Shown piece after piece: positions 1-28,250 of a stretch of DNA of 56,329 nucleotides (the first letter of the stretch is position 1; the number at the start of each line of letters is the position of its first letter). The DNA comes from Stentor roeselii (Eukaryota; Ciliophora; Heterotrichea; Heterotrichida; Stentoridae). The position numbers were made by a program, and so were the translations under genes. The stretch lies in contig RSEH01000288.1 in NCBI GenBank assembly GCA_006503475.1, forward strand, positions 1 to 56,329, in the 5' to 3' direction. Below the pieces are notes generated by a model, which was not told where the DNA came from, did not search any database, and was given only the letters and a program-made list of their open reading frames with translations.

Positions 1-3000
1 AAAGCCAGTTCAATTGCTCTTCTTGCATGAGAGACTTCGTAAATCTCAGAAAGCAAGTCAGAATCAAAGTCCTTTAACCCAGCACAAGCCATATAAGTCT
101 TTCCAACAGTTTCAATCTTAGAAACTCCGATAGTATCACAAATAGAGTCAAAGCGACTGAACAAGTCATCAAGAATCGAAATGATTTCTTTTTCTTCACA
201 TTGTTCAATAATCTTGTCAAAATCGCAGATATCACAGAAGATAACAGAAACAACTCCTTTTTCTTCAGCGATATATCGAATCCCGTCATTGACTCTTTTT
301 TTCACGAACTCAGGAAGAAGGTAACTTAAGATTTGGTTTGATTTTTTGAAATGAGTTTCTGAGTTTTGAATAGAAAGGTACTCTTGTCGTTTGTTTAAAT
401 CGATGCAGTAAGAAATAATCAAGCAAACTGATGAAATCCCTGAAATTAAAATAAATGAAATTAGTGAAATATTGATCACATCTGAATCGTTTAATAAAAC
501 TCCTTGATAAACTATTGTGTAGAGTGCAGCACAATAGGTTATAACAACTTGTATTACAGTGTATTTCCATTTAAAAAATATATATACACTGAAAAGCACC
601 TGAATGCAAGCATAATAACTAACTGTATGCCGTGAATTTACAGAAGAGTAAACAACTAGGCTCAAAACCAGGAAAATATGAAGCATTAAAAATAGTTTGC
701 ACCTTGGAATCTGCCTAATAAAAGTTAACACTAGAAAAGGAACAGTTAAGCCAACAGGAATAGTGGCGTAATCATGATACTCTAAATAATCAATCGCATT
801 AGTATAAACAAGGATCAAATACAAAAAGCACATGAAACTTATAACTCCTACAACAATCTTTATAGAATTCTTTGAATCATTATTAATTTGATCCTGATAT
901 TTTTTTTCTTGGTATTGCGAATTAAACTTTAAAGACTTTTTATTGATTTCTAAAACTTCAGACTTTTCAATACTGTTCCAATCATCAGTCTCTTGATACA
1001 AGTCATCAAGTTTATTTTCATACATTTCTTTGCGATCTTTGAAATGACTTAAAAATATTTTCTTTTGCAAGAGGATGAATAAAAAATACTCAAAAGTGAC
1101 AAATAATGGAACTGTTAGTCCGATTACCCAGAAAATTCCTTGATTTGAGATGATTTCGTAGAAATCTTTGGATAAGTAAAAAATTAGCAAAATCATGAAT
1201 AAAAGTCCTAAAAATGGAGAAATTATTGTTGGGAAGTAGAATTTTCTTGTTGTCATTACTGTCTTTATCAGTAGACTGAGAGATGCTATTAGAAAGTAAA
1301 GCTCTGTTTGAAGCTCTGAGTCTTCAGTGAAGCCTTTTGAGTTTATTATTCCGCTAAAGCATGAAGTACAGATACTGTAAATGAGGATTGCTTGGAATGC
1401 ACCGAAGATAAGGTAAAAGATTAACCTTTTCATTGACATCATTGAATCGAATACTCCTGATAAATAGGCTTCCCTGCTATTTTTGCATGTACTTTCATCA
1501 CAATCTTTTTCAAAAACTCCAACAATAAGTATAGGCATCAATGTAATAAAAATTTCAAAAATAACAAAATAATGATATTCAATCACCGGAGAATTCGACC
1601 AAGCAGCTTTGCTTTGATGCAACAAAACCAAAAAACAAATCATCGACTCTTTAAACAATGAAAAATGTAAGATCTTCGAAAGTCTTACATAAGAATAATG
1701 TCCTTCAACAAGTATCAACCTTTTCAAATCCGAAAACTTAGGAACCGTAATACTTGGGTTGAAATAAGGGTTATTTTCTTTTCCTTTTTCAATCAGTACT
1801 GAAATATCAGCTTCTTCAAGCATGCCCGAGTCGCACATGACGTCTCCAACGGCCATGACAGTCGGATTATGTGCAAAGTTCTTCTTCAAGAGCTTGACCA
1901 AAGACCTCTTCTGATCCGGGTTAAGTCCATAAAAACAAACTGAATCTGAAACCAAAAGAAGAGAAGATAAAAGCCTTCTTGAAGCCTCGGCTAACAATGC
2001 AAAATCAAGGAACTCTGAATCGATTACTAAGGAAAAGTTTATTGATTTTAGGCTTGGTTTAAAGGAAATTTGATTGTTTAAATTTTTTAGATCGAAATTT
2101 TTCATGATTAAAGAACGTAAAGTTTTGTTTCTTCGGATGTTTTGGATTGATCTTCGACTTTTAGGACTGGATTGCTTTATTATTTGGTTTGGACTTGTGG
2201 ATGCTTCAGGGATTGACTTGGCTAAGGACTGGTGTATCCCTGTTTGCTTTTCTGAGCCTTTTTCTTCTATGTATTCTTCGTAGAGTGTCTTTTTCATCAT
2301 CTCTATTGAGTGAACTGAATCTGTTGCTCCTACTAAATATCGAACTTTTGAAGAGTTTTTAAAGAGCTTTGATGAATATGCTGCTAGAAGTGCGTTTCTT
2401 CCATTGTTCCCTGAAACCATCCAAGTCTTAATTCCAGCGTTTTGAATTTTTCCAAGTGTTTTTCTTATACTTTTATGATGTTTATATTGAAAATTAATAC
2501 AGCCAAGAAATTCAAGGTTTTCTTTGTGACTTTCAAAGAGTAACTGCAGTTTTCCATTTGAGTTAATTGTTGAAAATAGAGCGATTTTATAGTCATATAA
2601 AAACTGCTCAAGTACCTCTCTTTGAAGTGAAACTTTATAGAAAAAGTATGTCTTATACCTTGCAAGATAATTATTTGATTCAAAAATTTTAGGATATTCT
2701 TCTTTTTCTTGACAGTTATGAAGTCTTTTATCACTCTTTATATAAATAGTTCCCTTTGACTGAAAAGTGTCAGGTGCATGTTTTCTCAGGAGTTCTCTCA
2801 CAAAAAAATTTATAGATTGTTCTTTGTAATAAAAAATTAATATACAATCTTGATTGATCATATCAAAAAGATATTAAGTTAAAAAATCATTCATGGAATC
2901 CGATAATCGCTCAAATTTTAATAAAGTAAAATACAGGTCTACATTGATATTATAATCTTAAATAAAGAATTATATAATCCCTACAACTCTCTCCCGTTTC

Positions 3001-4774
3001 AATAATTTCTAATCGCAAATAAAAGACAAGTGTTTTATATAAATGATATACAAAATTATGAATTTATTTTGGGTGAAAGATAAAATTACTGTAATTTAAT
3101 TTTGTATACACTTTGCTTTTCCAAAAAATCTTTATGATCAAGGTAAACATCGATTAATATGTTTGAGAAAAGGGAATATTTTATTTAACAGTCAGTAGTC
3201 AGAACAAAGGTCTGCCTAGTATTCTTAAAGTTAGCAGTTACCAGATAGTCTAACTGCTGTTTATTAAAACTAATAACAAAATATTCATTACTTTTCTGCT
3301 CAATATCTAATCCTATACTTTTACCCAATTTTAGTATTTTTTCATTTTCTCTTGTTGGTTTTTGTAACTCAGGCAAAAAACTTAAACTTGTAAACAAAGC
3401 ACCATAAAAATACTCAATATTTTCACAAGAGTCTTGATTTAACAGATAATCTTTTAAGTTCTCAAACCCAATATACTTTTTATCATTTTTTATTGTCAGT
3501 CCTGCAGACTTGATGAGATTTTCTTTATCACCGACACTATTCCTTTTTTTGATATCTTTCTGTCTGAAAAAAGTTTGATCTTTCAAAAAGACTGAACTGA
3601 TTTTCATGTTTTTGTGTTTAATCAGGTCTTCTTTATCTATTATCAAGTACTCCACCCTTCCAAGCTCCTGAAGGCTCATTGGGTCAATATCAAACCTTCT
3701 ATTTTTAAGCCATATCACAAAAACTGCCAAAATCCTAGAAATTTTAAGTACAATAAAGTAAGAAATTGATATAAGATTACTGTAAAGGATTATGTACCAA
3801 ACAATACTTTCATAGAGTAAGTTTTTTAGAGGCTGATCATGAAAAGAAGCTGCTACTACACTGATGATGACTAGAAACACAATTATCAGGAAATTCAAAG
3901 AAAATATTTTGTTTATTGTAACCGACATGATAGGCATTTTTGTTTTCAGAGTTGATTTTGAATTCAACCAGTACTTGGTTTCCATCCCTGTGTAGACCAC
4001 TAGGCCCAACATCCATTCAGTTGAAACTAGAATAGAACCTCCTATAACAAGGCTGTTCACCCCAACCAAGTAAGTCTTAAGATCACCTCTATACCTAATC
4101 TTCGCCTTAAACTTCTTAAAAGATAAATTCGGAAGACTCACCAAAATACTTTCAATTTTCGTTAGACTATAAAAAATCTCATTATGATCAAGTTCTTTCA
4201 AAATCTTAAACGAATCAACAGGAATCTTTTCAACATATTCCTTACTTCCAAGGTTCCTCGACTTATCAAAAAAAGCCTTCTTCCCTCCTTTGCAGTCCAT
4301 CAAAATAACATCAGCAGGGACTTCTTCTCCTTTGGCAATCAAAATCAAGTCCCCGACTTGAACGTTTTTAGAAAAAATGGTTTCAAAGTTGAAGTTTTTC
4401 CATTTTTGTACTTTTCGATTGTTGAATTTTTTCCCGAGTTGATGTGAGTGCCATAGATGTACAATATTTTGAGCTAGGGCTGAAAATACAAGTATAAAAA
4501 AGGATATCAAGTTGTAATATTTAAGAATGTTTTCTTTTATGGTGAAAACCATCTCGAGGACTATCACCAAGAGAAACCAAAAATATGGAAGTTTACGAAA
4601 TTCGAGGTAAAGGGTGACTGGAAGGACATTCCACCAACTCATGTCGCTTAAGTACACCTTGTTGCTTATGTAAGGAGAGGGAGCTGAAGAGTATGCTCTT
4701 TGAGGATCAATCTCTCGGTATTGAGACTTTTTGAAGACACTTGATGACGATTTCTGAAGTCCATTGCTTAACAT
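1..4774 (-). CDS. P4-ATPase-like / guanylyl cyclase fusion, partial at window edge
   Basis: The gene reads leftward as 4774..3190 joined to 2848..1 and leaves the window inside a cyclase domain; about 1,477 residues are visible. The first exon has a P4-ATPase front: membrane segments, an actuator-like stretch (QVGDLILIAKGEEVPAD near residue 140) and more membrane segments. The phosphorylation site is degenerate (IDKEDLI near residue 380 instead of DKTGT). The second exon has the late P domain (WMVSGN for the usual TGD, GDVMCD for GDGxND), the P4 C-terminal membrane segments, a second membrane block, then a class III cyclase start (VIFCDICDF at about 216-245). Ciliates and apicomplexans are known to have guanylyl cyclases fused to such ATPase modules, so cGMP synthesis at a membrane is the likely role. 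The ATPase half lacks its catalytic residues and is probably structural or regulatory. The start has the local TAATAAATATG context. Confidence 0.85.
2849..3189 (-). other. 341-nt interruption (long intron or retained insert) in the cyclase gene
   Basis: On the minus strand the first ATPase ORF stops at 3187-3185, inside the nucleotide-binding domain. The domain resumes at 2848. Removing 3189..2849 (starting GT, ending AG) restores frame and gives TTDYCILIFYYK, which fits the P4 ATP-binding segment. The flanks also carry a short direct repeat GA(C/T)TGT at 3193-3188 and 2849-2844; deletion between the repeats also keeps frame. The insert is AT-rich with stops in all frames checked. It contains a 12-bp inverted repeat (3047-3058 and 3097-3108, TATACAAAATTA) and a 9-bp pair at 2854-2862 and 3133-3141. 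It carries no protein I recognise. Confidence 0.75.
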
Positions 4775-21282: not shown

Positions 21283-21447
21283 TATTTAATGATTTTCTAT
21301 GTTATTTAAAGATTTTCTCTGTTATTTAATGATTTTCTCTGTTATTTAATGATATTCTTCGTTATTTAATGATATTCTTCGTTATTTAATGTTATTCATC
21401 GTTATTTAATGATATTCTTTGTTATTAATGATTTTCTTTGTTATTTA
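21281..21447. repeat. 20-bp tandem repeat at a 3'-3' gene junction
   Basis: Seven units of exactly 20 bp (starting at 21281, 21301, 21321, 21341, 21361, 21381 and 21401) are followed by one of 19 bp at 21421 and a partial copy. The consensus is GTTATTTAATGATTTTCTCT. The array fills the space between the stop of the carboxypeptidase gene and the GTPase gene, and the last copies encode the final residues (NNKENH) and stop of the GTPase. Confidence 0.9.
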
Positions 21448-27914: not shown

Positions 27915-28250
27915 TTTTATTGTCTACCATTCTTATATATCTAAATGATACAAAACACTATTTTTGTATCATTCTTATCTTATCTAAATTTATTCAAAAA
28001 CACTATTTTTGTATCATCTTATCCATATATATGACAAAAACACTATTTTTAACAATTCTTATCCATATAAATGACAAAAAACACTATTCAAGCATTCTTA
28101 TCAATCTAAATTGATAAAACACTACTTTTACACCATTCTTATCAATCTAAATGATAAAAACCTTTCCATAAAACTTCCTAAAAACACTATTTTCCTACCA
28201 TTCCTATGCATATAAATAATTCCAAAACCACTATTATTCAACCATCCTAA
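27915..28250. repeat. degenerate ~40-bp tandem repeat at a 3'-3' junction
   Basis: The core CACTATTTTT recurs at about 27956, 28001, 28041, 28082, 28120, 28185 and 28229, giving spacings of 45, 40, 41, 38, 65 and 44. Between cores the pattern TATCATTCTTATCnATCTAAATGATAAAAA repeats with drift. It lies between the stops of AP-4 mu and the pantothenate-kinase-like gene. The short ORF at 27920-28114 is only a translation of the repeat. Confidence 0.85.

What the first reader, a model, noticed from the sequence alone, without database searches (positions are those of the whole stretch)
2849..3189. A 341-nt insert breaks a gene in a genome whose other introns are all 15 nt
All twelve frame-restoring introns found here are exactly 15 nt. 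This one is 341 nt, AT-rich, and sits inside the ATP-binding domain of the cyclase fusion. It can be read as a GT-AG intron (3189..2849) or as an insert flanked by GA(C/T)TGT direct repeats; both restore frame and the domain. It could be a retained internally eliminated sequence, a mobile-element remnant, or the rare long intron of this lineage. A strictly TA-bounded excision does not restore frame with the nearest TA pairs, which argues against a classical TA IES at those points.
Basis: partly seen in the sequence, partly recalled or inferred. Interest (0 to 1): 0.8.

Follow-up and report, generated by a model that had tools for sequence, protein, structure and literature searches.

The report
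Non-coding insert splits a ciliate gene
One gene of a large signalling-protein family in a ciliate with tiny introns is interrupted by about 400 letters of unique, AT-rich, non-coding DNA that looks like inserted DNA (perhaps a germline segment that was not cut out) rather than an unusually long intron.

Summary
The interruption is real: a P4-ATPase/guanylate-cyclase fusion gene on the minus strand has two long open frames (529 codons from its ATG; 957 codons to the contig end) separated by AT-rich DNA with stops in every frame. The stated extent and the intron reading are not supported. In 24 of 24 intact paralogs read, the two protein strands around this point span 18-22 residues. The 341-nt GT-AG join gives 47; removing 422 nt gives 20. 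Family profile, codon bias and GC steps put the far boundary near 2811-2756, not 2849, so the insert is about 395-430 nt. Within the family's spacing no GT-AG and no TA pair fits; an exact 5-bp direct repeat (CTGAC) does, but chance gives one as long in 14% of placements. The donor is GTT, not the GTA of Stentor introns. The sequence is single-copy in the 44-Mb assembly, and no comparable insert was seen in 34 sister genes, 21 dyneins or 25 ABC-transporter matches. Best reading: inserted DNA, either a retained germline-limited segment or a young disabling insertion. RNA and DNA reads are needed to decide.

The parts
3188..4774 (-). upstream open frame of the P4-ATPase/guanylate cyclase gene, 529 codons from its ATG
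   Evidence: Pfam PF16209 and PF00122
3..2873 (-). downstream open frame of the same gene, 957 codons, cut by the contig end; its first codons (about 2873-2804) probably belong to the insert
   Evidence: Pfam PF16212 and start of PF00211
2774..3195 (-). non-coding insert, best-estimate extent (422 nt); far boundary uncertain within about 2756-2811, near boundary within about 3186-3213
3191..3195 (-). first copy of the direct repeat CTGAC
   Evidence: chance 14%
2769..2773 (-). second copy of the direct repeat CTGAC
   Evidence: chance 14%
3204..3208 (-). first copy of the alternative repeat TTTGT (404-nt extent)
2800..2804 (-). second copy of the alternative repeat TTTGT (404-nt extent)
2730..2750 (-). 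second conserved strand (TIYIKSD) that anchors the family spacing

Best explanation
A unique, AT-rich, non-coding DNA segment of about 400 nt (best estimate 422 nt, 2774-3195) lies in one P4-ATPase/guanylate cyclase paralog, in the short loop between two strands of the nucleotide-binding domain, where 24 of 24 sister genes read have nothing comparable. It is inserted DNA, not an intron. Either it is a germline-limited segment (IES-like) left in this somatic copy, or it is a recent insertion that disabled this paralog before the rest of the frame decayed; I rate the two about equal. As assembled, the DNA would not give the full-length fusion protein. Shown: the interruption, its single copy, the intact sisters, the boundary shift. 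Inferred: that it arose by insertion and is not spliced. Not shown: whether all somatic copies carry it, whether excision is involved, and that the window really is somatic DNA.
For: 34 other family members with open frames of 1,879-2,290 codons have no stop in the matched stretches (my count of its table); 24 of them read in full are single open frames. Strand span 18-22 in 24 of 24; 422-nt removal gives 20, the 341-nt join 47. Profile: 643.8 and 648.9 bits for the 422-nt join against 625.3 and 628.5 for the 341-nt join. Codon-bias sum turns up from 2801, GC steps at 3190 and 2801. One match in the assembly. Donor GTT. No other comparable insert in 21 dyneins and 25 ABC matches.
Against: No empty site, second copy or read evidence. 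The CTGAC repeat is within chance (14%). Under the 422-nt extent the last 33 codons of the insert must be open in the downstream frame by chance (5%), and 2800-2771 is 47% GC like coding DNA, which favours the 404-nt extent. Part of the profile gap is the penalty for extra residues, so it is not independent of the spacing. No inverted repeats beyond chance. No transposase hit for PF13843 (controls silent, uninformative) or PF13358.
Confidence: 0.62

Rival explanations
1. A true spliceosomal intron of 341 nt, a rare long intron in a 15-nt-intron lineage, with the downstream exon carrying a family-unique loop of about 27 residues.
For: GT-AG ends, frame restored; annotation in a related karyorelict capped introns at 40 nt (PMC11441545, passage), so long ones could be under-reported in such genomes.
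Against: Donor GTT against GUA; length about 20 times the norm; 34 of 34 sisters uninterrupted where matched; span 47 against 18-22; 19 GT-AG pairs restore frame.
Confidence: 0.12
2. Gene fission: two genes, the downstream one starting at the ATG at 2861 with the insert as spacer and promoter.
For: Both frames are long and open; an ATG lies at 2861; the stretch is 23% GC, and non-coding DNA in the fetched loci is 27% GC against 38% for coding.
Against: The split falls inside one domain between two strands, and no sister gene is split there.
Confidence: 0.1
3. Assembly error: a chimeric join or misplaced reads within the contig.
For: The contig itself breaks in the same gene, and about 1.5 kb of it is missing before C284.
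Against: The break lies where tandem sisters are identical over a 100-residue bin, about 2.8 kb from the insert; the insert and its flanks have no other match; both flanks belong to one gene, in order.
Confidence: 0.08
4. A classical TA-bounded IES retained in the somatic genome, with a longer loop in this protein than in its sisters.
For: 79 of 289 TA pairs restore an open frame; TA at 3218/2814 (404 nt) has ends matching at 10 of 15 and scores 638.8 and 642.6 bits.
Against: No TA pair gives a span of 18-22 with both strands kept; a 10-of-15 match occurs in about 1.7% of random TA pairs, so about one is expected among 79.
Confidence: 0.08

Closest known systems
IESs of Blepharisma (PMC9942856; passages and section 7 read)
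   Same: Intragenic, a few hundred bp, AT-rich; 6,566 Blepharisma IESs have direct repeats without TA, and there is a size peak near 389 bp
   Different: Three quarters of Blepharisma IESs are TA-bound; the 389-bp class has TAA/TTA repeats and inverted repeats and is repetitive. Here the best-fitting repeat is CTGAC, no inverted repeat stands out and the sequence is single-copy. Excision is untested
15/16-nt introns of Stentor and other heterotrichs (PMC9505925, PMC11441545; passages, and section 2.1 of the first, read)
   Same: GT..AG ends, AT-rich, interrupts a coding frame
   Different: About 20 times longer, donor GTT not GTA, boundary conflicts with the family
Introns flanked by direct repeats that resemble IESs in spirotrichs (PMC1805493; abstract and outline read)
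   Same: Short direct repeats around an interruption in a ciliate gene, open between DNA and RNA removal
   Different: Those introns were shown with RNA; here there is none
P4-ATPase/guanylate cyclase fusions of alveolates (PMC6592433; passages read)
   Same: Domain order of the host gene; ATPase signature partly degenerate
   Different: The host gene is interrupted; 34 sisters in the assembly are not where matched

Membership tests
Heterotrich-type spliceosomal intron | length 15 or 16 nt | tested here: not met
   341 nt or more; norm
Heterotrich-type spliceosomal intron | starts GTA | tested here: not met
   GTTAAA at 3189
Heterotrich-type spliceosomal intron | removal restores the family protein | tested here: not met
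   frame yes, but span 47 against 18-22
Heterotrich-type spliceosomal intron | spliced from RNA | not testable with these tools
   no RNA reads
Internally eliminated sequence | absent from most somatic DNA molecules, present in germline | not testable with these tools
   no reads, no germline assembly
Internally eliminated sequence | bounded by TA repeats (the common class) | tested here: not met
   frame-restoring TA pairs exist but none within family spacing
Internally eliminated sequence | bounded by some direct repeat, excision restores the protein | tested here: inconclusive
   CTGAC at 422 nt, span 20; chance 14%
Transposable element or MITE | multiple copies in the genome | tested here: not met
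   one match; germline-limited copies would not be seen
Transposable element or MITE | terminal inverted repeats | tested here: inconclusive
   none beyond chance, boundaries uncertain
P4-ATPase/guanylate cyclase fusion (host gene) | P4-ATPase domains followed by cyclase domains | tested here: met
   PF16209, PF00122, PF16212 and the start of PF00211; the rest lies beyond the contig end

The most novel reading that the evidence does not exclude
A retained internally eliminated sequence in a standard-code, tiny-intron (Stentor-like) heterotrich, with a non-TA 5-bp repeat boundary: a concrete entry point to programmed DNA elimination in a group where it has been hard to study.
Probability: 0.28. 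Interest if true: 0.6.

Novelty: new member of a known kind. Interest (0 to 1): 0.36.

Why it matters
If the segment is absent from most somatic DNA molecules, it is a candidate IES in a lineage where genome editing is hard to study: PMC9942806 speaks of significant hurdles in Stentor (passage). If it is spliced from RNA, a spliceosome fitted to 15-nt introns also handles one 20 times longer. If neither, it is an ordinary young broken paralog in a family of about 35. The case also shows that restoring the frame is weak evidence in AT-rich DNA (19 GT-AG pairs and 79 TA pairs do so), while conserved spacing across paralogs discriminates.

Tried and rejected
Rejected or led nowhere: the 341-nt GT-AG intron as leading reading; TA-bounded excision at family-like boundaries; a PiggyBac-type TTAA pair at 3188/2840, 348 nt apart and so not frame-restoring (counted by hand); inverted repeats; an embedded tRNA (none in the window) or Rfam RNA (none at E up to 1 in 2700-3350); other copies in the assembly or in 243 kb held locally (best E 0.002 over 38 nt); an exact 28-mer in viral or prokaryote contigs (none). 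PF13843 gave no hit but its controls were silent too, so nothing follows; PF13358 gave no hit while 3 controls rang. dN/dS against the C72 sisters is saturated at most synonymous sites and cannot date the event. The data do not separate a 422-nt from a 404-nt extent; a 401-nt TAA-flanked join also scores well (642.6 and 647.5 bits), but it discards upstream codons with a high coding score. Rows left out of the survey: 25 of the 43 rows other than the query itself were used; the rest are shorter or partial pieces, among them C367 and C355 with internal stops. In one search, 21 of the 40 rows other than the query itself were used; the rest are second pieces or partial genes (C1, C42, C390, C286, C511, C339).

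Full report
What is in the sequence. The window is the whole of contig C217 (56,329 bases) of a 44.4-Mb assembly in 522 contigs. The gene lies on the minus strand. Its first part is open from an ATG at 4774 to a TAA at 3187; its second part is open, in another frame, from after a TAA at 2876 to the contig end. Pfam finds P4-ATPase parts in both frames and the start of a cyclase domain in the second. The 24 sister genes that I read are open under the standard code over about 49,000 codons, so UGA, UAA and UAG are not read as sense there. GTAA..AG junctions in the window number 7 at 15 nt and at most 2 at any other length; over 242 kb GTA..AG junctions number 12 at 15 nt and at most 5 elsewhere from 10 to 60, while GT..AG junctions as a whole show no clear peak. 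These traits, and a transposase-like family (PF12762) that a paper notes in Blepharisma and Stentor (PMC11441545, passage), fit a heterotrich ciliate near Stentor. The species is not established, and that the assembly is somatic is an inference.

The family as a ruler. A search of the assembly with the joined N-terminal part gave 34 other P4-ATPase/cyclase genes with open frames of 1,879-2,290 codons and no stop in the matched stretches (my count). One further member, on C513, runs off its contig end and has a single in-frame UGA but no change of frame and no insert. The window copy is thus the only one seen with an inserted stretch and a change of frame. The insert falls between two strands of the nucleotide-binding domain; the same strand pair aligns between sister L017 and a solved flippase, 6k7g. 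In the 24 sisters the pair spans 18-22 residues (median 20), and the second strand is followed by the next landmark after 31-39. In the window copy I take TIYIKSD (codons 2750-2730) as the second strand, as the alignment with the sisters does.

Boundaries. I scored 2,518 distinct frame-consistent joined proteins against a profile of the 24 sisters and one of the three nearest (per-boundary table). The 25 best joins on each profile start the second exon between 2811 and 2756. Part of that gap is the penalty for 27 extra residues, so it is not independent of the spacing argument. The running codon-bias sum in the downstream frame is lowest at 2804 and rises from 2801; GC steps lie at 3190 and 2801. 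With both strands kept, spans of 18-22 need 416-428 nt removed. Among these joins there is no GT-AG and no TA pair, and the longest exact direct repeat is CTGAC at 422 nt, span 20; a repeat that long occurs in 14% of random placements. A 404-nt extent between TTTGT repeats scores 642.1 and 644.3 bits and fits local GC better, but its span is 26. Against the 422-nt extent, 33 codons of the insert must be open by chance, about 5%.

Against an intron. The donor is GTT where Stentor introns start GUA (PMC9505925); 8,173 of 8,806 annotated Stentor introns are 15 nt and the rest 16 (section read); the length here is about 20 times that; 34 of 34 sisters are uninterrupted where matched; the boundary conflicts with the spacing. 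Frame repair is expected by chance: 19 GT-AG pairs and 79 of 289 TA pairs do it. A caveat: the Loxodes annotation capped introns at 40 nt (PMC11441545), so long introns could be under-reported in such genomes.

What kind of DNA. The insert is 23-24% GC, has stops in all six frames, one match in the assembly, no known RNA and no inverted repeat beyond chance. In a survey for similar inserts, genomic minus coding span lies between -138 and +48 nt in 21 dyneins (one with an internal TAG) and between -21 and +216 nt in 25 ABC-transporter matches (one with two TAA); the larger values lie in open frames. Broken genes do occur: dynein fragments with many stops on C511 and C339, PF12762 fragments, 7 of 9 short rows with stops, and the UGA in the C513 sister. 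A young broken paralog is therefore a real alternative to a retained germline segment, and I rate the two about equal.

Is the rest of the gene intact? The contig ends inside the first cyclase domain. Contig C284 begins inside the 3' end of such a gene and is open for 86 codons to a TAA, 70% identical to sister L002. It is probably the same gene, with about 1.5 kb missing between. The break lies where tandem sisters L002 and L003 are identical over a 100-residue bin, so repeats explain it.

Verdict. A real single interruption by about 400 nt of inserted DNA; a long intron is unlikely. For Blepharisma, PMC9942856 (passages, section) describes IESs that are mostly TA-bound but in thousands of cases bounded by other direct repeats, with a size class near 389 bp; that is the closest known kind. 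Two searches of the held papers listed no paper on IESs of Stentor itself by title; most subscription papers are not held, so this shows no absence.

Noticed in passing
L002-L004 (C72) and window 1-4774: The window gene and the three tandem C72 paralogs have lost the DKTGT phosphorylation motif, and the cyclase block is 59-80% identical among the pairs compared while the ATPase half is 25-50%.
   Followed up: partly
L028 (C284:1-900): Contig C284 begins inside the 3' end of a P4-ATPase/cyclase gene, probably the missing end of the window gene, about 1.5 kb away.
   Followed up: partly
L029 1452-1455 (C513): Another family member at a contig end has a single in-frame UGA in an otherwise open frame, with no change of frame: a nonsense change or a recoded stop.
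   Followed up: partly
G000 C40:166797-170588: A full-length dynein frame of 4,126 codons holds a single in-frame TAG, possibly within an in-frame 15-nt intron.
   Followed up: no
G000 C511:243388-244082 and C339:256713-257337: Decayed dynein fragments with many stops.
   Followed up: no
G000, 15 places: PF12762 transposase-like family: 6 rows with open frames of 385-473 codons, 9 shorter rows, 7 of them with stops.
   Followed up: no
window 27925-28161 and 21283-21447: Tandem arrays with units of about 40 bp and 20 bp.
   Followed up: no
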